Assembly (NCBI GenBank): GCA_963971425.1
Contig: OZ020524.1
Span: forward strand, 20,265,022 to 20,329,021
Length of the DNA: 64,000 nucleotides
Direction of reading: 5' to 3'
Source of the DNA: Bryoerythrophyllum caledonicum
Taxonomy: Eukaryota; Streptophyta; Bryopsida; Pottiales; Pottiaceae
Part shown: piece by piece, positions 2,108 through 42,240 of the stretch
Position numbering within the stretch: the stretch's first letter is position 1
Layout: every line of letters starts with the position of its first letter
The notes under the pieces: model-generated
Told to the model about the DNA's origin: nothing
Databases searched by the model: none
Seen by the model: only the letters and a program-made list of their open reading frames with translations
Translations under genes and position numbers: made by a program

Positions 2108-3454
2108 TTAACCCCTAAAGGACCAAGTGTCCAAATTGGGCTTTTTGAAAGTTTGGTCAGGTTCCTATGGTGTCAATTTCCAACATTCTTCTTTAAATTT
2201 TTTACTATAGAAAGACATTACCAAGAGCTTAGTGGGAAAATAAATTTTTCCTAAATTGGACATTTAATGAAAAAGTTATAGGGTTTTGAATTTTAAATGG
2301 GGAGGGCGGGCACCTCGGGCACCTCCAAAAACTTTTGATAGGACACTCTATTGAAAGTGAGATTTTCAGTACTCGCAAGTAATATTATTTCCCTTCATGT
2401 TGTCAAAAAAAAGTTCTTGTCTTTAGTGAAAAATAGCATACCAACCTAAGTCAAACATTTTCACACATTGTCACTCATTGTCGGGCAAGGTACCAAAAAA
2501 ACTTCTTCTTTTCCACATAAAACCTAGAGATCTTTATATTTTTCACTTTTTATTTTTCCCACAACAATATGTAATGTAAACCTTCTTATTAACCATTCGG
2601 ATTATCAATCGAAAACATATTAAGTTCAAAAACAATTAAAGTGTGAATTAACAAATTTCAAGCCTCCACTCCTTGCACACTTGTTTTGAATATGCTACAT
2701 CCTATCTCTACCTCTAAAAATTGGTGTGTAAGGAGCTAACATCATGCTTAACAAGATGGTAATAGATTTAGACCTTGTGTAGTGAAAATTTTTGACACTA
2801 ACTGAAGTCAAAGTCTGCTGATCCACTAAACGCAGGGAAGAAAATGAACCATTTTCTTGACTTCAAACACTATAATCTTTCAATCCGTGCAGTCAAAGTT
2901 TATGAAATTTTGTACACGTATTACTCAATAAGCCTTTATTGAGATCCTACGGTCAAAACTAAAAATAAAAGTTTTTGTTACCTTCTTTATTCATTGCACT
3001 AGAATCCATTAATTTTGAAGTGTTTTTGGTGTAAAATTGTCTTGGTACCTTAGAGCATCTCCACCCCAAGACGGAGAACCACCAAATTGGAGTTTTGTGA
3101 GGTCAAATAGTTGCACCCATCACCTCAAAACGGGGAAACTTTATAAAATTTTAGAAGTTTTGGTGCATGGCACACCAAAAGCTCCTTGGATGGGGGGAGT
3201 GCGCCATTTTTTGATGTTGGTGACACACCCATACCCTCGCAACACGTGGCGCCATGTCATTGATGTCGACACATGGCACCGTGTCATTGGTGGCGGGAGG
3301 TAAAAGGTCAAAGCATTTTTTTGGGTAAAATTTTTTGGAGCTTGGGGTGGAGCCAAGCAAGCACCAAACCCTCAACCACTCCTGGCGTGAAATTTTTTTT
3401 CCGTCCTAGCGTGGAAAATTCCACGCCAGGAGTGGAGATGCTCTTAGGGGTTAA
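2108..3454. mobile_element. piggyBac-like non-autonomous TIR element, copy A
   Basis: The segment is bounded by TTAA at 2108-2111 and 3451-3454. The inverted ends are imperfect: TTAACCCCTAAAGGAC on the left, and TTAACCCCTAAGG on the reversed right. TTAA duplication with ends starting CCC is the signature of the piggyBac superfamily. There is no transposase frame, so it is non-autonomous. It is carried again, diverged, at 21187-22116. About 394 bp of its length is a nested MITE near the right end (3053-3443 plus one TTA). Assignment to piggyBac rests on ends and target site only. Confidence 0.65.
3053..3443. mobile_element. PIF/Harbinger (Tourist-like) MITE nested in copy A
   Basis: Ends GAGCATCTCCAC and GTGGAGATGCTC are perfect 12-bp inverted repeats. 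They are flanked by TTA on both sides (3050-3052 and 3444-3446), the 3-bp target duplication of PIF/Harbinger elements. The element has no transposase. The related element at 21187-22116 has a single TTA at the same place and no insert, which serves as an empty site. Ends of the GAGCATCTCCA type are common in plant Harbinger MITEs. Confidence 0.8.
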
Positions 3455-4795
3455 GAAGAAAATGGAGCTCTTAGGGACTTAGTCTTTAGAATCTTTTCAC
3501 TTTAATGTTACTTTTGAACATGTTTACTTTACTTTTACATAAGATACTTTTGAAAGGGTTTCTAATAGAGGTATTTGAAATTTTGAATGTGTCTTCAATG
3601 GATTTATTATGGTCCAAGGGCAATTTTCCATTCAATATATAGTTTTATTCACTAAAATCACTTATAACAGGTAATTCAATGAAAATTTGATAATAACTTT
3701 TTTTACACTTTTGTTGGTTGGTAGAAGAAGCTAAGAAGCTTCTACAAGTAGTTATAATTTTTGTTTAATTAGTACGTGTAATAACTCCAAACCCAAGATT
3801 ATAAATATTTAGTGTCACAATGTACTTCCTTTGAAGTTTAGCATTCCTAAAAAATCCTTGTAGAAGGGATTAAATGACAAAATAATTAGGCCCACATGAA
3901 GAATTAAGTTAACTTTTACCAGCAATCAACCAAAATGTAAAAAAAAATCAATTTTATTTTGAATTCTCTGTTTTTGCCAGAATTCAATAGGGCGTAGTAG
4001 GATATTACCGCCATCTACAACTTCAAATATTGACAATTTGAGGGCCATGCAAGTTACAAAGTTGGATTTTTTTCTCATAAATCCTCAAAGTGGATGGAAC
4101 ATAAGCAAAGAATTGTCATGCCGGTTACTTAGCAATTGTTGACAAAAAATTCTCATTTTATATTTGTCATGAGTTATAAATGATTGTGGCTTATGAATTT
4201 TTGCAATTGATGCATAATCTTATTAATAAAGTAAAAGAGTCTATAATATTTGAATCAATTGAAGAAATGATATTTTGGTTGTGACATTGGGAATAAGAGC
4301 TTAATAGATTGTATGTAACATGCAAAGGCTGAAGAGGGCCTATGGAAAGAAGGCTAGTTTGACCCCAAATATGAGGTAGGTGATGACTTTGTTCAAACCT
4401 TTGAGGAAATATACACACTTAGCTCCCTTTACAAGAGCGTCTCTTACAACAACCATCTCCCTCTACAAACAGTTAAGTGCCTTTATAAACATTTAGTTTC
4501 CTCTACAAACATGGTTGTAATAACAAATGTTGTTTAAACAAACAAGGTTGTTGAAAAGGAAGCTGATTGTAGTTCTAGAAAAAAAATCACATGAAACATA
4601 TACTTGTTTGTGGGCATAGAGAAAAAGATACTAGCACTGATGTTGGTTAGACCAATGAAAACAAAGATTTAAATTACCATTGAATGTTGCTAGCAAAGAA
4701 ATATATTTAGAAGGTATATATGTTAGGAGGACTTAGACCGCTAGTTGAGTGATGATACTATCATTGTTGCAAGGAAGTTCCAAGTACAATTCCAA
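3455..4795. other. Intergenic, no gene seen
   Basis: AT-rich sequence without a recognisable coding region, RNA gene or bounded repeat. Confidence 0.5.
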
Positions 4796-13865: not shown

Positions 13866-14185
13866 TCTTAAGAGATGTGAAGCAAACAAACCAGATGAAC
13901 AACAAGAATGAACTGTCTCTATGAGCACAGGCCTTGGTTTATTTATCTCGAGGCATTAGTGCCTCGAGATTAACGGTAGGTTGAGCTAGTTGTGAGTTAA
14001 CTGTAGGTAGCTGGTGGTTAATGCCTCGGGATTAACGGTAGCTGGTAGTTAATGCCTCGGGATTAACGGTAGCTGGTGGTTAACTGCGTGTTAACTAGAA
14101 GGTCTACCTAATCCGGGTAGGTGAGCTGAATGCTCCTCATTAAGAACCCCGGAGTGAATGGATGTATATTCATCCTATTTTAACA
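13866..14185 (-). repeat. copia 3' LTR
   Basis: 320 bp. On the plus strand it starts TCTTAAGAGATG, where the other LTR starts TGTTAAGAGATG, so the terminal dinucleotide is mutated; it ends TTTTAACA. It holds two copies of a 31-bp unit beginning GGTAGCTGGTGGTTAATGCC. Confidence 0.9.
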
Positions 14186-14251
14186 CTCCTCCTTGAACAA
14201 TGATCTTCCTCATTAAAAAAACTTCAAAAATATGAAGGAAAAAGAGTAAAG

Positions 14252-16003
14252 TCATTGTTCGGAATCTAATTCACTCAAGGTTCTCATACCTGCTGCTGTG
14301 ATTAATTTCCGGTGTTGGGGAGCGGGTAATGCCTTCGTCAGAACATCGGCAATGTTGTCAGCCGATGGGATCTTCTTGACTTGAATCTGATTAGTTTCGG
14401 TGAGGTCTTGTGTGTAACCAAAGATGTGGGGGCTGATGTATTTGACACGGTCAGCCTTGATGAATCCCGAAGACACTTGCTCGATACATGCTGCGTTGTC
14501 TTCGAATATGATGGTTGCGTTGTTTCTAGGTGGGAGTCCGCTCATCTGAAGAATAGCTTCTTGCATGGTGCGGAGCCATACTGCTTCGCGTGATGCTTCG
14601 TGGAAGGCAAGCAGCTCGGCGTGGTTGGTGGAGGTGGCGGTGACCGTTTGCTTGGTTGATCGCCATGATATCGGTGCACCGTTTTTGATGAAGATATAGC
14701 CAGTTTGGGGCTTGCCGGTCAAGGGATCGGTCTTGAATCCAGAGTCGGCGTATCCGACTATGTCGTTCGGTGCTTGTTTTTGGTAGTGAAGTCCGAGATC
14801 CTCTGTCTCGCGGAGGTATTGGAGGAGGTGCTTGATGCCTTGCCAATGTCGGGCCGTGGGCTTCTGGCTGTGCCGTGCAAGTACACTGACTGCGAACGAG
14901 ATGTCCGGCCTCGTGTTGGTGGCGAGGTATAGTAGGGCTCCGACGGCTGCTAGGTACTGGGATTTGTCGAGCTCCTCCTCGTTGTCTTCGGCTGGTCGAT
15001 ATGGATCGTCTTCGGTGCAACTCTTGCCGATCATGGGGGCGGACAACGCGTTAGCATTCTCCATGTTGAATGCACGTAGCATCTTCTTGACGTAGGTCTG
15101 TTGATGAAGAAGCAAGTTGCCGTCCTCGAAGTGTTTGATCTGTAGACCCAAGCAGTAGGATGTGCGACCTAATACTTTCATCTCAAATTTTTCGGTTAGT
15201 AATGTTTCTACGTATTTACTTAACGTTGATGTCCCTATCGAGTTTAGATCATCAACGTATACCGCGAGGATCACGAAACCAGTATCGTCCTTGAGGATGA
15301 ATACACAGGGTAGGGCTGGGTGGATTGTGAATCCTTGGAAAAGTAGAAAGGACTTTAGGTGGTGATACCATGCGCGGCCGGCATGTTTCAAGCCATAAAG
15401 GGCCTTGTGGATTCTCAATTCAGCAAACTTCCCGGGTTGGGGAGAGGTATCACCTGGTAAGAAGTCTGGTGGGGGTTTAATGTGAATTTGGGTGTCTAGG
15501 TCACCATACAAATATGCTCTAATGACGTCTAATAGACGGGTTTCGAGGGTTAGCTAGACTGCTATGCTTAGAAGGTAACGAAAAGATGTACTATCCATTA
15601 CGGGGGAGTAAGTTTGCTCAAAATCTATCCCTCGTTTTGGTGTATACCCTTGGGCTACTAGCCTGACCTTAAATCGAAAGACTTTACGGTGCTCATCTCG
15701 TTTGCGGGTAAATATCAATTTGTGCCCTATGGGTTTGGTTGTGAGGTTGGTCACTAGGGGTCCAAAAACTTCACGTTTTCTAAGGGATTTGTATTAATTT
15801 TGTAAGGCTTTCTCCCACTCTGGCCAATTTGGGCTACTCTTAGCCTGATCTAGTGTAGTTGGATCCATCTCGGGGTGGGTGAGGAATGATTGGAAATCAT
15901 CCAACGGGATTTCTACAGTCGGCTCTGATGGGTTGTAATGCATGTGCATGGCTGCACGTGCTCGGGGGGCCGGGTTCATTTTTCGTTTCTTGGCTGGGGT
16001 CAC
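14252..16003 (-). pseudogene. copia reverse transcriptase / RNase H region
   Basis: The frame carries the RT start (FKVRLVAQGYTPKRGIDFEQTYSPV), then LYGLKHAGRAWYHHL, the RT active-site motif YVDDL, the connection PDISFAVSVLARH, and the RNase H signature GYADSGF...TSTNHAELLAFHEA. It stops normally at 14252. In-frame stops at 15794-15796 and 15554-15556 interrupt it, and it is in a different frame from the upstream gag-integrase part, so a frameshift lies between about 16003 and 16228. The product cannot be made as one polyprotein. Confidence 0.9.
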
Positions 16004-16227
16004 TGGGACCGGGTTACCTGAACTAGGTACGGTACTTCTAATGATCCTGGGTCCTGAGTGAAATCCATCAGGGATGTTCTCGGCGAGGTTCTGTAGGTTG
16101 ATTAATTTTCTAACCTCTAGATCTGTGGGTCTGGGTTTAGGGTCAAGGTTTCTAAATCCTTGAAGTTCAGGGCTTTGTAGGTGGGTAGGTATGGGGTGCC
16201 TGGGAATTTTTCTATAAACTTACAGTT

Positions 16228-18612
16228 CTAAAATCTAGCCTTGTAAATATCGTCACTCTCGGGGAGTTTGTATCGAATGATACTTGGGGAGTCATATCCA
16301 AGGTATATGACTCTAATTCTGTGGGGTGTTAAAGTTTTCTGTTTTGGGACAGAAACAGGGACCCATACTTCGTAGCCAAAGGTGCGTAAGTGGGCGATAT
16401 GAGGTGTTCTACCGGATGCTAGTTCGAGCGGGCTTTGGGTTTGTAGAAGCGTTGGTATGAGCCTAAGTAATACAACGGCGTGTAAAACAGCATGACCCCA
16501 CAAGGTGGGCGGTAGGTTCGCATGAAATAAAAGGGGTCTAACTATGAGCTGAATCTTTTTGATATAGGCTTCTGCTAAACCGTTCTGGGCGTGTTCATAC
16601 GGAACTGAGTAAGTTAATTCTATCCCGGACTCTACACAGAAATCTTCGAAGGCTTGGGATTTGAATTCTAAGGCATTATCCATTCGAAGATAACAAATCT
16701 GATTATCAGGGAAATGGTTCTGGAATCTAATAAGCATCGCTAAGGTTTTAGGGAAGACCATATTTCGGGTTGTAAGCAATGAAACTTCAGCATGTCTCCC
16801 AGATGCATCAACAAGCACAAAGAAGTATTTAAACTGACCGGATTGAGGTGTGATGGGACCGCACCAATCGCCATGGAGGCGGTGTAAGGCGGCTGGCATC
16901 TTTGTCGGGAGCTTCCACCTCGACGGCTGTCTTATCAACTTCCCTTGTATGCATGCGGGACACTCATCCACGCGCTCCGCGTCGTTGGTGCACAGGTCAT
17001 GGCCTGTGAGATGAGGGATCATCTTCCTCATCATCGTTGATCTCGGATGGCCTAGCCGGCGGTGCCACAGGTTGGCCTTGTTGCTGGTGGCTAGGAACGA
17101 TGATATCATGTCCCTAGAGGGTAGGCACTGATGACACGCTCCAAGGCGTCCATCGGCCTCTTCCTCACCTTTGCAGAGGGGCTCGACTTGCTTGATAGCA
17201 AGCTCATATAGGCCGTTGGCTCCCGCGTGTGCGGTGGCGAGGATCGTCGGCCCTCGCCTGAGCTCCAACACCTCTTCATCGTTCTCACGCGTAGTGGAGA
17301 CGTGGATATTGTTGGCCCGTAAGTCACGATAGCTGATCAAGCTACGTGGGGCGTCTGGGGCATACATAGCCCGTGCACAGATGAAGGGGGCTCCCCCGGG
17401 CAAAACAATCTTTGCCCGGCCCTCACGTAACTTGAAGTTCCTTGTGCCTGCTATTGTGACTATGTCACAACTTTGCCACGGTTCGTTTCGAGTTTTGAAC
17501 TCGAAGTACGACGGGTCTTGTAAAATAGTGTGAGTAGAGGCGCTGTCTAACAATGCAATTTTGGCTGTGCTGACTGGCGCTACTCGCTGGACCATATAGT
17601 TTTCTAGGTCTAGATCAGTGAGTGTGAGGGAGAGTGCATCGAGGGTGTGTGTTTCCCTCTTGCCCTCCTTCAGTGACTGCAACTCTTTATACATCTCACA
17701 GACATTCTGGGAGGCACGACATTCCTTGGCGTAGTGACCAAGGCGACCACATTTATGACACATGCCTTTGACTGTCCTAGTGGATGACTGAAAAGATGTT
17801 TCGTTTTTGGGTTTATACGCATACCTCGGGTTTCGAAGATTCCGGTTCCACTCTTGCTTCGGCTTCCAGCTGCCCTTCGATTTTCGGCGTGGTGCATGAG
17901 AAATGTGTGACTCCCGGCTGCCGTTGCCTTGTACTGGCTTGGAGTTGTGTGTTTTCGCCGGGTTCGAGGTCTGCGGTTGACGCTGTACTTTGCTTGTATG
18001 GATCTCCTTGGCTGGGCGCGATTCGGCGTTCTTCAGCAGCAGTTGTTGTTGCTTCTCAGCCAAGAGCAAGTAAGACATGAGTTCGGCATGCGTCGTTAAC
18101 CTCGTGTTGCGATATTGCTGGGCTAAGATCGCGCATGCAGGTGGAAACGTTGACAGCGTCTTGTCAATCACCTCGGTGTCTGCTACTGTGTCGCCGCAAA
18201 GTCGGAGTTGTGCAACGATCCTGTGGAGCTCCGAGTTGAATGCAAGAAAGTTGGGGAAGTCCATGACACGAAGAGCGATCCACTCGCTACGGGCTTGAGG
18301 TAAAAATATGGTCTCCTCGTGTTTGAATCGGGCCTCCAAAGCTGTCCACAGTGCGGTGGGGTCTTCTACCTGGATATATTGCTGTCGCAGTGAAGGATCA
18401 AGGTGACGTCGAAGGAGAAGAAGTGTCTGCCATTTGTATGTAGCTGGAATCTCCTCCTCGGGTGTTGGGTTTAACGTGACGTCTAGTTCCTCAGCGCATA
18501 AGTATGTCCGCATGTCTATGTTCCAACCTAAGTAATTCGATCCATCGGGTTCTAAAGGTTCAAAGATGAGAGGTTGTATGCGGCTATCGCGGGGTGGGCA
18601 ATGTGCTGCCAT
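16228..18612 (-). pseudogene. copia gag-protease-integrase region
   Basis: An open frame of 794 codons from 18612. An N-terminal UBN2-type gag is followed by the zinc knuckle CHKCGRLGHYAKEC (near residue 285). Next come the aspartic protease core LLDSASTHTIL (near 353) and the integrase HHCC region HRRLGHP...CPACIQGK. The DDE core follows, with LHGDWCGP, FVLVDASGRHAE, RMDNALEF and NGLAEAYI. It ends at a TAG at 16228 within the integrase-RT linker. This part looks intact, but the polyprotein is cut off from its reverse transcriptase. Confidence 0.9.
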
Positions 18613-19030
18613 AGCTATGACTTCTATGGTTTCTACAACAGGTTTGGCTTCAGGTGTCTCTGACTATAAAACTGGCTGTCTAAACAACAAAAGAGAGAAA
18701 AAGAAAACTTCATGTATTTCTACACAAGCGGAGGATGATGAAGAGAGAAAAATAAAATAAAATTGAAAGACATGAGCGAAAGTGTTGGCTGCTCTCGAGA
18801 CTGCTCGGGGGATTGCACTCACGAACTTAAACCATCAATCCTCAACAAAGTTGCCAGGTCAGGGAGCCCGGTTAGTTCCCTGCAAGACAGCCTCGTGTAT
18901 TGGTCGTGATTGGGTTCGTGAAGCATCCCTTCACCGTTCCTCACTCTCTACTGCGATCACTACTACGTGATTGAAGGAAGAGAGAAAAATAAAAAATCAG
19001 CAAGAGAGCGTGAGATACGTGCTGATAACG

Positions 19031-19381
19031 TGTTAAGAGATGTGAAGCAAACAAACCAGATGAACAACAAGAATGAACTGTCTCTTTGAGCACAGGCCTT
19101 GGTTTATTTATCTCAAGGCATTAATGCCCCAGGATTAATGGTAGGTTCAGCTAGTTGTGAGTTAACTGTAGGTAGCTGGTGGTTAATGCCTCGGGATTAA
19201 CGGTAGCTGGTAGTTAATGCCTCAGGATTAACGGTAGCTGATAGTTAATGCCTCGGGATTAACGGTAGCTGGTGGTTAACTGCGTGTTAACTAGAAGGTC
19301 TACCTAATCCGGGTAGGTGAGCTGAATGCTCCTGATTAAGAACCCCGGAGTGAATGGATGTATATTCATCCTATTTTAACA
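19031..19381 (-). repeat. copia 5' LTR
   Basis: 351 bp, TGTTAAGAG...TTTTAACA on the plus strand. It is longer than its partner by exactly one 31-bp unit (three units against two), with scattered point differences. Confidence 0.9.
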
Positions 19382-21186: not shown

Positions 21187-22116
21187 TTAACCCCTAAAGG
21201 ACAAGTGTCAAAATGGGCTTTTTGAAAGTTTGGTAAGGTTCCTATGGTATCAATTTCTAACATTCCTCTTTGAAAAATTTAAAGTAAAGGGGCATTAATA
21301 AAACCTCAATGGGAGAATATTTTATTCCTAAATCCAATATTTAATGCAAAATTTATTGGATTTTGAATTTTGAACTGGGTGAGCAGGCACATTGGGTTCC
21401 TCCTAAAACTTTTGCTAGAACACTCTATTGAGTGTGAGATTTTCAATGCTAGCAAGTAATATTATTTACTTTGATATTATTAGAAAAAGTTCTTATCTTT
21501 AGACGAAAATAGCATAATAACCCAAGTCAAACATTTTCACACATTGTCCGACTTGAAGGTTCTTCTTTTCATTATAAAACTTAGAGATCTTTGTATTCTT
21601 TACTTTTATTTTGTCCACATTAATATGTGGTGCAAACCTTTCTATTGACCATTTGGATCATCAATCTAAAAAACAATAAGTTCACAAAAAAATAAAACAT
21701 GATTTGGCGATTTTTGAACCTCAACTCCTTGGAGAGTTGTTTTGAATATGCTACACCCCTCCACTACCGCTAAGAATTGGTGGATATGGAAATAAAATCA
21801 TGTTTAACACAATAGTAATGGATTTAGACCTTGTGTAGCGCAAACATTTGACAGCAAATGAAGCCAAAGTCTGCTAATCCACTCAACGCAAGGATGAAAA
21901 TGAACCACTTGCTTGACTCCAAACACTGTAATCTTTCAATCCGTGTGGTCAAAGTTTACGGAATTTTGTGAGTCTGTTACTATTCAGTCTTATTTTAGAT
22001 CCTACAGCCAAAACTAGAAATAATAGTTTTTGTTTCCTTCTTTATTTCATTGCACTAGAATCCAACAATTTTGAAGTGTTTTTGGAGGGAAAGTGCCACG
22101 GTACCTTAGCGGTTAA
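21187..22116. mobile_element. piggyBac-like non-autonomous TIR element, copy B
   Basis: 930 bp bounded by TTAA (21187-21190 and 22113-22116), collinear with 2108-3454 over its length but diverged throughout. The site of the nested MITE in copy A is empty here (single TTA in GTACCTTAGCGG near 22101-22112). No coding region. Confidence 0.7.
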
Positions 22117-35600: not shown

Positions 35601-35740
35601 GACTCTAGCCTATTCCTTCCTTCCAATTTCCACAACATTTTAAGGATTTGTGGATACAAAGAGAAGGGTATGCAACGGCCAAACCTCCTTCACTATTTTT
35701 TTTATTAAACATGGGAAGAGGTCGGCACTTGCCTAATGTA
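32698..35740. other. Repeat-derived intergenic DNA, unassigned
   Basis: No gene is supported. The part at 32700-34300 may be the rest of the gag-bearing element, but LTRs were not identified. Degenerate repeats of about 60 bp (variants of ACTTGCCTATCCC) occur at about 35410-35690, next to the first Tc1-like element. Confidence 0.4.
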
Positions 35741-36680
35741 CAGTAGGGTGACATTCAAATTGGCCGTTTGGGCAATTCCAGGGATGGTGTCCCACACTGC
35801 TGCCAACTTTGACGCCCTCCACAGGGTTGAAAAATTGTTTTTTTACTCTGAAATTTTGGGAACAGCATCACCTCTATGTTAAAAACATGCATACCAAATT
35901 TCAAGTCCAGAGGACTTATAAAACAAAAGATATTAAAAATTAACCACCATGGGGTAGCTGTGAGAAAAGTTTCTCAACCGCCAACTTTGACACCATCCCA
36001 AGGATTGAGGAAATTTTTTTTGCCCATGGAATTTTTGGAGTGAGAACACCTTTATGTTGATTACATGTGTGGAAATTTTCAAGTCCAAGAAATGCACAAA
36101 AAAAATCACATCCCAAATCTACCAACATGTGTAATTGTGAGAAAAAAAGGGAAAAACCATTTTACTACTTCCAACTTTGACACCCTCCCTAGGATTGAGG
36201 GTTTGTTATTTCAACATGAAATTTTTGACACATGGTAACCTTTATGTTGATAACATGTGGGAAAATTTTCAAGGCCAAAAAATGTATTCAAAAGAAGATA
36301 TTCAAAATCTACTAACATGGGGGTTAGTTGTGAGAAAAGTTTCATAGTTGCCCACTTTGACACCCTCCCAAGAATTCAAAAAAATTTATTTGTCCATGAA
36401 ATTTTGGGTATGAAGTCACCTTCACGTCAAATTACAAGTGTGGAAAATTTCAAAATCCAATTACACAAAAATCCACATACCAAGTCTACCAACATGTATT
36501 GTTGTGACAAACAAAGGGGAAAGTTTACCACTACTTCCAACTTCAACACCCTTCCTAGGATTGAGTTTTTGTTGATACATAATGAAATTTTGGCCACAAG
36601 ATCATCTCTATATTGGTAACATATGAGATAGATTTCAAAGCCAAAAGATGTATATACAAAAAAAAATTATTCCATATCTA
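35741..36680 (+). repeat. Left TIR of element 1: five tandem ~180-bp units
   Basis: Each unit contains a version of CCAACTTTGACACCCTCC, then ATTGAGG, GAAATTTTTGG, TTATGTTGA-ACATGTG, TTTCAAGTCCA and ATCTACCAACATG. Units begin near 35800, 35980, 36168, 36348 and 36533. Units differ from each other far more than the left arm differs from the right arm. Confidence 0.85.
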
Positions 36681-36989
36681 CGAATGTTTGTAACAATGAG
36701 AAACTATATTGAAGGGGCATATTGAGAATGTCAAATTATCTTTGACACCTCGTACTCTTCATTGATTTTATTCATGTGACTAAGCTACCAAACATAAATG
36801 CATCTTGAAAATATCAATGAAATCTACATGTAGAATTGCAGAGTTGTTTTGTGTAGAAGAATCCACTTGTCATAAGGTTTGGTGTGCATTATGCACGTAT
36901 GACGAGTTTTCTCCTCCAAATATCTGTTGAGCACTATGTAAAGGAAATGTTGTGTGTATTTTGTCATGTGATTTGTAATAGAGTGAATG

Positions 36990-37180
36990 TTGAGATGGTA
37001 TTGAGAGTGAATGTTGAGATGGTATTGAGTGGACATATTAGATATGGGCTGAGTGTTGTTGACTGATTGAGTGGACATATTAGATATTGGCTGAGTGTTG
37101 TTGACTGATTGAGTAGACAAATCACACATGGGCTGATCCATTGAGTGGGCATATCACATATGGGCTGATTTATTGAGTGG
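36990..37180. repeat. Minisatellite inside element 1, ~45-bp units
   Basis: Repeats of ATTGAGTGGACATATTAGAT with GGGCTGAGTGTTGTTGACTG, decaying to the right. A second short repeat (ATGCACATGCCATGGTTATC) follows at about 37273-37340. Partial similarity to 41390-41450 of element 2, inverted, shows shared ancestry. Confidence 0.75.
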
Positions 37181-37511
37181 ATATATATATTTATTTTTTT
37201 GAGAGTTATTGACTAGTTTACTGAGTGTTGACGAATCACATGTGGCATGAGTATGTCCAAAAGTATTTTTGGTTCACTCAATTGATGCACATGCCATGGT
37301 TATCATCTAATGCACATGCCATGGTTATCACCTAATGCACATGCCAATGTGAGTGTTATGTTGTTGATTGATTTATTTAGTGCACATGCCATAAGCTGAG
37401 TCCTTTGTGTTTACTGAATTATATAATCCAATTGCCATAGGTTGAGTGTTATATTGATTACTTATTGAAGAGCATTTAGTATTGTATCAACATCATAAAA
37501 AATAGTCTATA

Positions 37512-38519
37512 ATGGCAATTTCAGATGAAATCCGTGCTCGCATTATAGGTTTGAGTGAGGGAGGAAATACAGGAGTTCAAATTGCAGCCATTACTGGAGT
37601 TTCTATTAGAACAGTTCAGAGGTTAGTAAAAACGTTTAAAGAAGATGGAACTTATAAGCGCAAACCTTGCGGTGGAAGTCACGCTAAAAAACTTAGTGAG
37701 AGAGATGTGAATAATATTGTGCGTTATGCAAAAACTCATCGTTGTTCCTCGGTCTCAGAGATTACTAATATGTGCCGTACTCAAGTGTGTAGACGTACTA
37801 TTCAAATGGTATTACATAAAAGTGGTATTTTTAGTCGAATTGCAGTCAAAAAACCTTTCTTGACATCCCATCACATGTCTCAATGGTTAGCTTTTGCTCA
37901 GAAGTACCATGGATGGAGTCCAAAAGAGTGGGAGCGTATTGTTTGGACATATGAATCTACTTTTGAGATTGGAAAAAGTTCTCGGCAAATTCATGTTTGG
38001 AGAAGTGCATATGAGCGTTATTCATCAAGTTGTATAGTTCCTACTTTTAAAAGTGGACGGACATCTTTGATGATTTGGGGTGCATTTGCTGGAGGACAAA
38101 AGTCACAACTTGTCTTTATGCCAAAAATTCAACGTTCTGCTAAAGATTTTGTTGAAGTGGTCTACGATGGCGAATTGATTCATTTCTTGAGTACACTTCC
38201 AGAAGGAGTGCTAATGGAAGATGGTGCACCTGTTCATCGTAGCAAAACATGTGAAGAATGGAGACAAACCCACCAACTCGAAAAGCTCAATTGGCCTGCA
38301 AACTCTCCCGATCTCAATCCAATCGAGAATGTCTGGAGGATGCTAAAAGATGTTGTGCAACATGGCAAGGAATGCCCTAGAAACTTAGAAGTGATGAAGG
38401 TAGTTCTTGAAAAAGAGTGGAATTTGGTTAGTGGTACAAAGCTCCTTCAACTATGTCATTCTATGCCCTCAAGGTTACAAGCGGTGATTGATGCTAATGG
38501 AGGACATACACGTTGGTAG
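37512..38519 (+). CDS. Tc1-like transposase, catalytic Asp changed to Tyr
   Basis: 335 codons, uninterrupted. The N-terminal paired-type helix-turn-helix covers residues 1-60 (IRARIIGLSEGGNTGVQIAA, VSIRTVQRLVKTF), with a second DNA-binding half to ~115. The DDE core has the second Asp in LMEDGAPVH (residue 237) and the Glu in DLNPIENVW (residue 272), exactly 34 residues between, so DD34E, the Tc1 type rather than the DD39D mariner type usual in plants. The first catalytic Asp (the WTDES motif in element 2) is Tyr here (WTYES, residue 147, codon 37950-37952), so the protein should be catalytically dead although its frame is open. The last codon overlaps the start of the right TIR. Confidence 0.9.
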   Translation: MAISDEIRARIIGLSEGGNTGVQIAAITGVSIRTVQRLVKTFKEDGTYKRKPCGGSHAKKLSERDVNNIVRYAKTHRCSSVSEITNMCRTQVCRRTIQMVLHKSGIFSRIAVKKPFLTSHHMSQWLAFAQKYHGWSPKEWERIVWTYESTFEIGKSSRQIHVWRSAYERYSSSCIVPTFKSGRTSLMIWGAFAGGQKSQLVFMPKIQRSAKDFVEVVYDGELIHFLSTLPEGVLMEDGAPVHRSKTCEEWRQTHQLEKLNWPANSPDLNPIENVWRMLKDVVQHGKECPRNLEVMKVVLEKEWNLVSGTKLLQLCHSMPSRLQAVIDANGGHTRW

Positions 38520-39458
38520 ATATGGAATAATTTTTTTTGTATATACATATTTTAGCTTTGAAATCTATCTTATATATAACCAATATAGAGATGATCTTGT
38601 GGCCAAAATTTCATTATGTATCAACAAAAACTCAATCCTAGGAAGGGTGTTGAAGTTGGAAGTAGTGGTAAACTTTCCCCTTTGTTTGTCACAACAATAC
38701 ATGTTGGTAGACTTGGTATATGGATTTTTGTGTAAATCTTTTGGATTTTGAAATTTTCCACACTTGTATTTGACGTGAAGGTGACTTCATACCCAAAATT
38801 TCATGGACAAATAAATTTTTTTGAATTCTTGGGAGGGTGTCAAAGTGGGCAACTATGAAACTTTTCTCACAACTAACCCCCATGTTAGTAGATTTTGAAT
38901 ATCTTCTTTTGAATACATTTTTTGGCCTTGAAAATTTTCCCACATGTTATCAACATAAAGGTTACCATGTGTCAAAAATTTCATGTTGAAATAACAAACC
39001 CTCAATCCTAGGGAGGGTGTCAAAGTTGGAAGTAGTAAAATGGTTTTTCCCTTTTTTTCTCACAATTACACATGTTGGTAGATTTGGGATGTGATTTTTT
39101 TTGTGCATTTCTTGGACTTGAAAATTTCCACACATGTAATCAACATAAAGGTGTTCTCACTCCAAAAATTCCATGGGCAAAAAAAATTTCCTCAATCCTT
39201 GGGATGGTGTCAAAGTTGGCGGTTGAGAAACTTTTCTCACAGCTACCCCATGGTGGTTAATTTTTAATATCTTTTGTTTTATAAGTCCTCTGGACTTGAA
39301 ATTTGGTATGCATGTTTTTAACATAGAGGTGATGCTGTTCCCAAAATTTCAGGATAAAAGAACAATTTTTTAGCCCTGTGGAGGGCGTCAAAGTTGGCAG
39401 CAGTGTGGGACACCATCCCTGGAATTGCCCAAACGCCAATTTGAATGTCACCCTACTG
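38517..39458 (-). repeat. Right TIR of element 1: five tandem units, inverted
   Basis: Inverse of 35741-36680. The marker GTCAAAGTTGG (or variant) recurs near 38650, 38838, 39020, 39208 and 39387, matching the five units of the left arm in order. Confidence 0.85.
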
Positions 39459-39460
39459 TA

Positions 39461-40038
39461 CAATAGGGTGACATTCAAATTGGCCGTTTAGTAGTTCCAA
39501 GGATAGTGTCCTACACTGCTGCCAACTTTGACACCCTCCCCAAAGCTGAGAAATTGTTATTTTACCATGAAAATTTGGGGACAGCATCATCTTTATGTTG
39601 AAAACATGCATACCAAATTTCAAGTCCAGGAGACTTATACAAAAAAACTTATGCAAGATCTACCAACATGGGATAGCTGTGAGAAAAGTGTCACAGCTGC
39701 CAACTTTGACACCCTCCCAAGAATTGAGGAAAATTTTTTTGCCCATGAAATTTTTGGAGCAAAAACATTTTTATGTTGCTTGCATGTGTGGAAAACTTCA
39801 AGTCCAAAAGACCCATACAAAAAATAATATTCCAAATCTACCAACATGTGTAGTTTTGAGAAACAAAGGGGAAAACCATTTTACTACTTCCAACTTTGAC
39901 GCCCTCCTTAGGATTGAATTTTTGTTGATACATAGTGAAATTTTTGGCACAAGATCACCTCTACGCTGGTAACATGTGAGATAAATTTCAAAGCCAAAAG
40001 ATGTACACAAAAAAGTTATTCCATATCTACCAACGTGT
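39461..40038 (+). repeat. Left TIR of element 2: three tandem ~180-bp units
   Basis: Units begin near 39520, 39700 and 39885 with CCAACTTTGACACCCTCC-type starts, followed by the same internal landmarks as element 1. Confidence 0.85.
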
Positions 40039-40089
40039 ATGTCCTCCATTAGCATCAATCACTGCTAGTAACCTAGAGGGCATAGAATG

Positions 40090-41034
40090 TCATAGTTGAA
40101 GGAGCTTTGTACCATTGACTAACTTCCACTCTCTTTCGAGAACTACCTTCCACACATCTAAGCTTCTAGGGCATTGTTTGCCATGTTGCACAACATGTTT
40201 TAACATCCTCCAAACGTTCTCGATTGGATTGAGATCGAGAGAGTTTGGAGGCCAGTTGATCTTTTCGAGAAGGTGGCTTTGTCTCCATTCTTCACATATT
40301 TTGCTCCTATGGACGGGTGCCCCATCTTCCATAAGCACTCCTTGTGGAATTTGACCCATGAAATGAACCAATTTGGCATTGTAAACCACTTCTATAAAAT
40401 CCTTAGCAGAACGTTGACCTTTAGGCATAAAGACAAGTTCTGACTTTTGTCCTCCGGCAAATGCGCCCCAAATCATTAAAGAAGTCCTTCCACTTTTAAA
40501 AGTAGGAGCTAGACAACTTGATGAATAACGCTCGTATGCACTTCTCCAAACATGAATTTGCCGAGAATTTTTTCCAATTTCAAAAGTAGATTCATCTGTC
40601 CAAACAACACGCTCCCACTCTTTTGCACTCCATCCACGGTACTTCTGAGCAAAAGCTAATCGTTGATACATGTGACGAGGTGTCAAAAAAGGTTTTTTGA
40701 CTGCAATTCGACTAAAAATGCCATTTTTATGCAAGACCCTTTGAATAGTATGTCTACACACTTGAGTAGGACATGAATTGGTAATCTTTGAGAGTGAAGA
40801 GCAATGATGAATTTTTGAGTAATGCACAATACTACGAACATCTCTATCACTAAGCTTTTTAGCGTGACTTCCACCGCAAGGTTTGCGCTTGTAGGTTCCA
40901 TCTTCTCTAAATGTTTTTACTAACCTTGTAACTGTTCTAATAGGAACTCCAATAGTAGCTGCAATTTGAACTCCTGTAAATCCTCCTTCACTCAAACCTA
41001 TGATGCGAGCACGAATTTCATCCGAAATTGCCAT
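40090..41034 (-). pseudogene. Tc1-like transposase with late nonsense codon
   Basis: 314 codons close to the element 1 transposase. All three catalytic residues are present: WTDES, MEDGAPVH and DLNPIENVW, with 34 residues between the last two. A TGA at 40090-40092 stands where element 1 has a Cys codon. The frame continues beyond it for about 24 codons with the same C-terminus, ending at the TIR edge near 40018. Only the extreme C-terminus is lost, so it may be the more nearly active of the two. Confidence 0.85.
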
Positions 41035-41062
41035 TATAAACTTATAGAGTGGGTGATGCTAG

Positions 41063-41240
41063 CTACAGCAGTAGAATAGGGGTTAGAGCAGAGCAAGGGG
41101 GAGAGAAGGGGGCCAAGGGGCTAGAGCAGAGCAAAGGGGGTTGCAGGATTGACACGTGACAATTGGCAGAGGAAGGAGAACAGGGCTGGAGCAGAGCAAG
41201 GGAGAGAGAAGGGAGCCAAGGCGCTGGAGCAGAGAGGAGA
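41063..41240. repeat. Purine-rich tandem repeat in element 2
   Basis: Variants of GCAGAGCAAGGGAGAGAGAA and GGAGCCAAGGCGCTGGAGCA recur about four times upstream of the minus-strand transposase. Absent from element 1, so it was probably inserted or expanded later. Confidence 0.7.
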
Positions 41241-41663
41241 GAGAAGGGTCGCCAAAACACAAGCCCATATGCATACATGAAAAATCGTTTTGCTCTTAAT
41301 CACTCATCATGTATGCCCAATGTGAATCAACACTCATGCATCCCACAATACAACACTCTCTGTTTTGAGGATTGTCTCAACATTCAGTCTATCACAAATC
41401 ACACACACCATTCCCTTTACATAGAGTTCAATAGATATTTAGAAGAAAAAATTTGTCATGTGTCTAATGCACACTTTATGGCCAAGTGGATTCTTCTCCA
41501 TGGAACACCTCTTCACTTCTTCATTTAGATGTTATTGATCTATTTGAGAAGCATTTATGTTTGGTGGCTTACTCACATGATTGAGTTCAATGAAAAAGCA
41601 TGAGGAGTCAAAGATATTTTGACATTTTCAATATGACCTTCAAATTGTTTATCATGGTTACAC

Positions 41664-42240
41664 ATGTTGATAGATATGGAATAACTTTTTTATGTATGTC
41701 TTTTGGCTTTGAAATTTATCCCACATGTTACCAGCGTAGAGATGATCTTGTGCCAAAAATTTCATTATGTATCAACAAAAACTCAATCCTAAGGAGGGCG
41801 TCAAAGTTGGAAGTAGTAAAATGGTTTTCCCCTTTGTTTCTCAAAACTACACATGTTGGTAGATTTGGAATATTATTTTTTGTATGGGTCTTTCGGACTT
41901 GAAATTTTCCACACATGCAAACAACATAAAAATGTTTTTGCTCCAAAAATTTCATGGGCAAAAAAAATTTCCTCAATTCTTAGGAGGGTGTCAAAGTTGG
42001 CAGCTGTGACACTTTTCTCACAGCTATCCCATGTTGGTAGATCTTGCATAAGTTTTTTTTGTATAAGTTTCCTGGACTTTAAATTTGGTATGCATGTTTT
42101 CAACATAAAGATGATGCTGTCCCCAAATTTTCATGGTAAAATAACAATTTCTCAGCTTTGGGGAGGGTGTCAAAGTTGGCAGCAGTGTAGGACACTATCC
42201 TTGGAACTACTAAACGGCCAATTTGAATGTCACCCTATTG
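41664..42240 (-). repeat. Right TIR of element 2: three tandem units, inverted
   Basis: Inverse of 39461-40038; GTCAAAGTTGG recurs near 41800, 41990 and 42170. Confidence 0.85.

What the first reader, a model, noticed from the sequence alone, without database searches (positions are those of the whole stretch)
35741..42240. Tc1-like transposons whose inverted repeats are built of tandem ~180-bp units, with equal unit number at both ends
Element 1 has five units in each arm (about 940 bp) and element 2 has three in each arm (about 578 bp). Ordinary Tc1/mariner TIRs are tens to a few hundred bp and not internally tandem. The architecture recalls Foldback elements but is tied to a DD34E transposase. 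The matched copy number left and right, with units more different from each other than arm from arm, implies that arms are copied into each other as whole blocks, for example by gap repair or template switching. The units may carry multiple transposase-binding sites.
Basis: partly seen in the sequence, partly recalled or inferred. Interest (0 to 1): 0.85.

Follow-up and report, generated by a model that had tools for sequence, protein, structure and literature searches.

The report
Tc1 transposons with tandem-repeat arms
Two jumping genes in this plant-like genome have long mirror-image ends built of repeated 180-base blocks, and comparing copies from the same genome indicates that the two ends are kept matching by one end being copied over the other.

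Summary
Two abutting Tc1/DD34E elements share one TA: E1 (35741-39458) with five ~180-bp units per arm, E2 (39461-42240) with three. Units within an arm are 47-76% alike, the same unit in the two arms 95-100%. In the copies examined, unit number is fixed by subfamily: 3+3 in 20 of 21, 5+5 in 12 of 14. Arm-to-arm copying is supported: private variants lie in both arms of a copy (53 seen, 1.3 after re-pairing); E2's third unit is the same mosaic in both arms; one relative lost a unit in one arm only; another has 248 bp of flank copied in inverted orientation. Equality is not universal: a transposase-less ~1.3-kb family is 5+2 in 7 of 8 copies read, under end sequences ('caps') matching a simple Tc1 element without units. 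So arrays and caps look separable. Insertion at TGTACA, rebuilt at both ends, explains the abutting. Repeats inside Tc1 ends are known (IR/DR); their size and number and the copying evidence are the new part. Binding was not tested.

The parts
35741..39458 (+). Element E1, Tc1-like, 3718 bp, CAGT...ACTG ends, flanking TA at 35739-35740 and 39459-39460
35742..36655 (+). E1 left arm, five units (35742-35921, 35924-36099, 36102-36289, 36291-36467, 36473-36655)
38541..39456 (-). E1 right arm, five units (38541-38723, 38730-38909, 38911-39098, 39101-39276, 39279-39456)
   Evidence: inverted repeats I2 (675 nt, 99%) and I6 (205 nt, 97%)
37512..38519 (+). E1 transposase ORF, 335 aa, HTH_Tnp_Tc3_2 and DDE_3; first catalytic residue is Y in place of D
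36980..37346 (+). minisatellites (24-, 42-, 32- and 25-bp units) in the E1 leader between left arm and ORF
39459..39460 (.). TA shared by E1 and E2; the junction reads ACTG-TA-CAAT, that is TGTACA
39461..42240 (-). Element E2, Tc1-like, 2780 bp, CAAT...ATTG ends
39462..40008 (+). E2 left arm, three units (39462-39641, 39643-39818, 39822-40008)
41692..42239 (-). E2 right arm, three units (41692-41878, 41881-42058, 42060-42239)
   Evidence: inverted repeats I4 (398 nt, 96%) and I7 (191 nt, 99%)
40090..41034 (-). E2 transposase ORF, 314 aa, DD34E present, C-terminus cut short

Best explanation
E1 and E2 are two sister subfamilies (majority transposases 85.7% identical) of one Tc1/DD34E family with an extended IR/DR architecture. 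Each end has a terminal cap of about 30 bp followed by an array of diverged ~180-bp units; the most conserved 16-18 bp of each unit is the best candidate for an inner transposase-binding repeat (inferred). Unit number changes by in-register loss or gain inside one arm (seen in L092). One arm then serves as template for the other, by gene conversion or gap repair switching between the inverted arms, so the new number and new point mutations appear in both arms (pattern shown, enzymology inferred). The copying tract can run past the terminus into host DNA (L091, one case). Insertion is nearly restricted to TGTACA, and because the ends are CA...TG every insertion rebuilds TGTACA at both sides, so elements stack end to end sharing one TA, as here. 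Caps can be combined with arrays separately: non-autonomous arrays carry the caps of a different Tc1 element and are probably mobilised by that element's transposase (inferred).
For: Units and symmetry. Fixed number in sampled copies: 3+3 in 20 of 21, 5+5 in 12 of 14; end-to-end lengths read off the first 100 places listed agree, 33 of 38 E2-type pairs at 2772-2832 bp and 33 of 34 E1-type pairs at 3638-3795 bp. Copying: 12 E1-type copies, arms differ 0.55% within a copy and 1.48% between copies, 22 of 24 arms have the sister arm nearest, 53 minor alleles lie in both arms against a mean of 1.27 (max 5) after re-pairing arms; 20 E2-type copies, 49 against 9.2 (max 20); 1 of 49 and 0 of 32 at CpG. 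Shared mosaic: E2 unit 3 is E1-unit-3-like in front (90.6 v 78.6%) and E1-unit-5-like behind (87.3 v 75.5%), 56 of 20000 permutations as good, the two E2 arms being 96% alike there. L092 left unit 1 = right unit 1 front (92%) + right unit 2 back (94%). L091: flanks identical in inverted orientation for 248 bp outside the ends, one mismatch, then abrupt divergence; 41 of 43 elements show 7 bp or less. Target: 58 of 68 ends have TGTA outside against 285 of 3809 TA sites of the window preceded by TG; 21 abutting junctions. Caps and arrays.
Against: In the E2 subfamily only 9 of 40 arms have their sister strictly nearest, so homogenisation there is old, weak or incomplete. The 5+2 family has spread (219 and 192 ends for its two caps), so equal arms are not needed; its outermost left and right units are only 90-91% alike while five copies differ by 3.2-5.9%, so no recent copying there. 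The direction (five to three units) rests on a clock-like reading of 76-78% v 84-87% identities. The overrun is one case. No binding, excision or transposition was measured. E caps and the non-autonomous caps may be distant homologues with a 10-bp shift rather than unrelated. The fetched E copies were picked by transposase similarity, mostly from the top of capped lists.
Confidence: 0.7

Rival explanations
1. Equal arms by descent alone: each subfamily inherited its unit number from one founder, selection keeps arms alike, and no copying between arms takes place.
For: Unit number is constant inside each subfamily as sampled; E2 arms cluster poorly by copy; the 5+2 family shows no recent copying.
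Against: Private variants shared by both arms of one copy, 53 v 1.27 on re-pairing and 49 v 9.2; the same mosaic unit in both E2 arms; flank copied with the arm in L091.
Confidence: 0.12
2. Assembly artefact: assembler or polisher made the arms of each element alike.
For: Arms are near-identical inverted repeats, a known difficulty; one copy (L029) has a 200-N gap in an arm.
Against: Arms of many copies do differ (up to 4.2%), differences are unevenly spread along arms, L091 has a sharp 248-bp overrun and L092 an uncorrected unequal state. Read data were not available.
Confidence: 0.07
3. The units are passive: a satellite-like or hairpin-forming module carried by Tc1 elements, with all transposase recognition in the terminal ~30 bp; arm identity is a by-product of being a long palindrome.
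For: A simple 2,074-bp Tc1 element with a 28-bp TIR and no units lives in the same genome; the same ~1.25-kb array body occurs under two related caps (92.6-93.3% identical bodies in L087-L089); plant Tc1 elements PpTc1 and PpTc2 have 33-bp TIRs (PMC4054914).
Against: The unit core is the most conserved stretch (0.89 v 0.68 mean pairwise identity); the E1/E2 terminus resembles the core in reverse orientation (2 to 4 of 2000 shuffles as good, in ten uncorrected tests, and no such match in two of the three other termini); the IR/DR relative Bari1 binds its repeats (PMC3828361, passages).
Confidence: 0.35
4. L091's inverted flanks are a pre-existing 2 x 248-bp palindrome into whose centre the element inserted, so they are no trace of copying.
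For: The target is palindromic at the centre; L034 shows 13 bp of the same kind.
Against: 41 of 43 elements show 7 bp or less (for about a quarter of them only 21-26 bp of flank were in hand); both sides carry the same departure from the TA duplication (TG|CA), as expected if one side was copied to the other.
Confidence: 0.15

Closest known systems
IR/DR group of Tc1 elements (Sleeping Beauty, Bari, Minos, Paris, S)
   Same: DD34E transposase, TA target, inverted ends that hold repeated sites; SB has two direct repeats per ~220-bp TIR, Bari three (PMC7827188, PMC4120734, PMC3828361, passages read). The nearest solved chain to the E1 transposase is SB100X (E 1.4e-27).
   Different: Three or five whole ~180-bp units per arm of about 547 or 915 bp; the IR/DR ends described there are about 220-250 bp with short repeated sites. 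Unit binding is untested here.
Galileo F subfamily (P superfamily, Drosophila)
   Same: Long TIRs with ~210-bp internal tandem repeats varying in number; repeats are said to hold extra transposase sites in GalileoG (PMC3573991, passages read; PMC3688188 seen in a search listing only).
   Different: In Galileo F the two TIRs of a copy are reported to differ in repeat number, called independent TIR dynamism (PMC3573991, passages); here numbers match in the E1 and E2 types. Different superfamily.
Tetris / TIR-220 foldback (Drosophila virilis)
   Same: ~220-bp tandem repeats inside TIRs; terminal sequence shared with another element, DAIBAM (PMC4079207, passages read).
   Different: No transposase found for Tetris; here transposase-coding elements carry the arrays and a matching simple element is in hand for the non-autonomous caps.
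PpTc1 / PpTc2 of moss (PMC4054914)
   Same: Tc1-like DD34E elements in a plant, CAGT ends, TA target.
   Different: 1,584 and 1,709 bp with 33-bp TIRs; no internal units are mentioned in the parts I read. Closest in form to L085, not to E1/E2. Their sequences were not compared here.

Membership tests
Tc1/DD34E (Tc1/mariner superfamily) | DDE_3 transposase with D-D(34)E | tested here: met
   [quoted passage not shown] Pfam DDE_3 and HTH_Tnp_Tc3_2 above cut-off for both window ORFs
Tc1/DD34E (Tc1/mariner superfamily) | TA target duplication, CAGT-like ends | tested here: met
   T and A in the two positions outside 65 of 68 ends each (TGTA as a whole 58 of 68); ends CAGT or CAAT
IR/DR Tc1 group | long inverted ends with two or more direct repeats | tested here: met
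IR/DR Tc1 group | the outermost repeat lies at the very terminus and shares its sequence with inner repeats | tested here: inconclusive
   terminus resembles the unit core only in reverse orientation, in E1/E2 ends; columns 1-55 of unit 1 are 23-48% like other unit classes
IR/DR Tc1 group | transposase binds the repeats | not testable with these tools
   needs a binding assay
Foldback elements | long TIRs of tandem units | tested here: met
Foldback elements | longer target duplication and no DD34E transposase (recalled) | tested here: not met
   TA target and own DD34E ORF
Galileo / P superfamily | P-type transposase and 7-bp target duplication (7 bp: PMC3573991, passage) | tested here: not met

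The most novel reading that the evidence does not exclude
Tc1 ends in this genome are modular: a ~30-bp cap read by the transposase and an array of ~180-bp units that can be re-capped. A new cap or a new unit number arises at one end and is spread to the other by arm-to-arm copying, so a transposase-less array can leave one transposase and become mobile by another, keeping both caps matched.
Probability: 0.35. Interest if true: 0.78.

Novelty: new variant of a known kind. Interest (0 to 1): 0.62.

Why it matters
How the two ends of a DNA transposon stay matched while both change is an open problem for any element that needs two compatible ends. Here the question can be read from sequence: number of units, private variants, a one-arm deletion and an overrun into flanking DNA all point to one arm templating the other. 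It also gives a natural series (2, 3 and 5 units per arm; caps with and without arrays) for testing what inner repeats do in Tc1 transposition, in a Tc1 family with hundreds of ends in a plant-like genome, where Liu and Yang 2014 (PMC4054914) found Tc1 elements much less abundant in angiosperms than in moss.

Tried and rejected
Catalytic-residue loss as a selected feature: window E1 and 3 of the 12 other E1-type copies whose motif was found lack the first D or the E (L029, L031, L035), as do 2 of 19 fetched E2-type copies (L019, L026). A separate sample of 40 open E1-type copies gave 4 hits on the three catalytic residues where 124 missense changes over 145 sites predict 2.6, so it is ordinary decay. 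Dropped.

Relatives in virus contigs: one scan, none confirmed. Terminus-to-core similarity: kept as a lead only. The idea that caps 2 and 3 are unrelated was dropped: they are 26 of 33 alike. L029 (2+5) was first taken as unequal arms; its left arm contains 200 N, so it says nothing. A count of the simple L085-type family was asked for four times and not answered. The transposase structure was not predicted, since sequence already placed it. In the length counts, two E1-type + / - neighbours 16-17 kb apart were not taken as pairs, nor were unpaired ends; units were not counted in copies known only by length.

Literature searches: all in the open-licence PMC library; no listed title or abstract start described Tc1 elements with three or five ~180-bp units per arm or re-capped arrays. 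Subscription papers and preprints were not covered.
Full report
1. What is there. The stretch 35741-42240 holds two Tc1-like elements that abut and share one TA. E1 is 3718 bp with a 335-aa ORF on the plus strand, E2 is 2780 bp with a 314-aa ORF on the minus strand. Both ORFs match Pfam DDE_3 and HTH_Tnp_Tc3_2; the nearest solved chain to E1's is Sleeping Beauty SB100X, E 1.4e-27. The second and third catalytic positions are 34 apart in the 33 of 35 ORFs that my motif found. The unit core CCAACTTTGACACCCTCC occurs five times per arm in E1 and three times in E2, mirrored, every 178-190 bp, and a profile of the unit finds these 16 units and no others in the window at E 0.001. Units of one arm are 47-76% alike, the same unit in the two arms 95-100%.

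2. Both window copies look disabled. E1 has Y for the first catalytic D and E2's frame ends at 314 aa where intact copies read 335. Other copies have open frames with the triad.

3. Host. The window lies in a 437-Mb assembly of 894 contigs.

4. Other copies. Transposase searches returned 126 and 120 scored places, each at 93% identity or more to its query, out of 4217 and 4357 first-look candidates; counts are lower bounds. I fetched 20 E2-type copies, near the top of the list of 126, and 8 + 5 E1-type copies, the 8 near the top and the 5 more widely spread in the list of 120. With the window copies, 20 of 21 E2-type are 3+3 (L024 shows no left-arm unit; L026's last unit is cut) and 12 of 14 E1-type are 5+5 (L029 has a 200-N gap in its left arm, L030 shows no unit on one side; L037's outermost left unit is cut by the edge of the fetched stretch). 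End patterns count 779 E2-type and 455 E1-type ends in the genome (a few E1 ends may be in both), none for the pattern read backwards. From the first 100 places listed for each I read off pairs of facing ends: 33 of 38 E2-type pairs span 2772-2832 bp (others 2530, 2566, 2671, 2681, 2876) and 33 of 34 E1-type pairs span 3638-3795 bp (other 3253). No length lies one unit or one dimer away from the mode. So unit number is a fixed trait of each subfamily in these samples.

5. Arm-to-arm copying. For 12 E1-type copies the arms differ by 0.55% within a copy and 1.48% between copies; 22 of 24 arms have their own sister as nearest arm; 53 minor alleles sit in both arms of a copy where re-pairing arms between copies gives 1.27 on average and at most 5 in 500 trials. 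In the first 7 of these copies 31 of 32 such alleles were private to the copy and none lay at CpG. For 20 E2-type copies the signal is weaker, 2.24% within and about 2.8% between, 9 of 40 nearest sisters, yet 49 both-arm alleles against 9.2 (max 20), 25 of them private. No column distinguishes left arms from right arms (both consensus bases at 70% or more) in the 20 E2-type or 7 E1-type copies tested.

6. How unit number changes. E2's third unit is a mosaic: its front matches E1 unit 3 (90.6 v 78.6% for unit 5) and its back E1 unit 5 (87.3 v 75.5% for unit 3), with the switch just behind the core; 56 of 20000 permutations do as well. Units 2 and 4 of E1 (78.1%) and 3 and 5 (76.5%) are further apart than E1 and E2 at units 1 (87.2%) and 2 (83.6%), so the ~370-bp dimer seems older than the split and E2's arm a shortened one (a clock-like reading). 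The third units of the two E2 arms are 96% alike. L092, an older relative, shows the step half done: its left arm has two units, the first joining the front of right unit 1 (92%) to the back of right unit 2 (94%), while the right arm keeps three. L091 is 2+2 and L093 3+3; all three have damaged transposase frames 52-68% like E1/E2 over their main pieces.

7. An overrun. In L091 the inverted identity does not stop at the ends. The flanks outside both ends are the same in inverted orientation for 248 bp with one mismatch and then diverge at once. Among 43 elements with both ends in hand, 41 have 7 bp or less of such identity, L034 has 13 and L091 248. The best reading is that repair copied one arm over the other and ran on into host DNA.

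8. Target and stacking. TGTA stands outside 58 of 68 ends, while 285 of 3809 TA sites in the window follow TG. As ends are CA...TG, insertion into TGTACA makes two new TGTACA sites. 21 places hold two E-related ends sharing one TA (pattern with up to 3 mismatches). A rough estimate of mine, 30 TGTACA in the window scaled to the genome and about 617 elements (half of 779 + 455), gives about two by chance. The window pair is one of the 21.

9. Arrays under other caps. Next to several copies lie arrays with other ends. The end CAGTCCCCTTCAATAAGGTTACGTAC has 219 matches at up to 3 mismatches; of 38 pairs read from the first 100 places, 32 span 1307-1323 bp, four 1136-1278 and two 2074. L082, L083, L086 and the array in L023 have 5+2 units (with a short unit remnant) and no transposase; L084, a shorter variant, has 4+2 cores. 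L085, one of the two 2074-bp pairs, is a simple Tc1 element: 28-bp TIR, 347-aa open frame, transposase 42% identical to E2, no unit found. The 1.32-kb ends match L085's right end at 31 of 32 aligned bases of the first 33 and its left end at 26-27 of 29, and the E ends only weakly after a 10-bp shift. A third end (pattern CAATACCCACCAATAAGTGTACG, up to 2 mismatches) has 192 matches; L087, L088 and L089 carry it on the same array body, 5+2 units, 92.6-93.3% identical to the other over about 1270 bp; the two caps are 26 of 33 alike. From about base 36 inward these ends align with E unit 1, 48 of 62. So similar arrays sit under at least two kinds of cap. The 5+2 family shows that equal arms are not required for spreading, and its outermost left and right units are only 90-91% alike while copies differ by 3.2-5.9%, so no recent copying is seen there.

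10. How it works. Shown: extended repeat architecture, fixed numbers in the samples, both-arm variants, a one-arm and a two-arm deletion, one overrun, narrow target, caps and arrays in more than one combination. Inferred: double-strand-break or gap repair templated by the opposite arm, inner units as transposase or architectural sites, mobilisation of the 5+2 arrays by the L085-type transposase.

11. Against what is known. Tc1 elements with two or three repeats per end are the IR/DR group (PMC7827188, PMC3828361, PMC4120734: passages). Galileo F has ~210-bp repeats in its TIRs with numbers reported to differ between the two ends (PMC3573991: passages); Tetris has ~220-bp ones (PMC4079207: passages). 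Plant Tc1 elements were reported by Liu and Yang with 33-bp TIRs (PMC4054914: abstract, first two of five text parts and sections 9 and 10). TIRs of 17-300 bp are given for Tc1/mariner (PMC9777934: passages). What I read in these does not describe arms of about 547 or 915 bp in a DD34E element with matched whole-unit arrays.

Noticed in passing
window 4771 to about 5480: Array of a 9-15-bp-period tandem repeat (50 overlapping register hits, 30 shown); not examined.
   Followed up: no
window 2132-3053 and 21209-22109: Two ~0.9-kb stretches with three blocks 79% alike, 19 kb apart; unidentified repeat family.
   Followed up: no
window 13868-19381: Copia-type retrotransposon with ORFs 14252-15511 and 16228-18612 (minus strand) between direct repeats 95-98% alike (Pfam for the second ORF).
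   Followed up: partly
L090:1-3221: Two 5+2 array bodies in one place (one with a cut last unit), and at the right end the ~40-bp cap-3 sequence is tandemly doubled at a TGTACA-like site, a possible step in cap change.
   Followed up: partly
L032:360-4100: An E1 copy flanked on both sides by other Tc1-type elements, each junction sharing one TA: three stacked elements.
   Followed up: yes
L042-L081: Catalytic region of 40 open E1-type frames shows 124 missense to 30 synonymous changes, no clear sign of constraint after insertion.
   Followed up: partly
L034:364-376 and 4055-4067: 13 bp of inverted flank identity beyond both ends, either a palindromic target or a short copying overrun.
   Followed up: no
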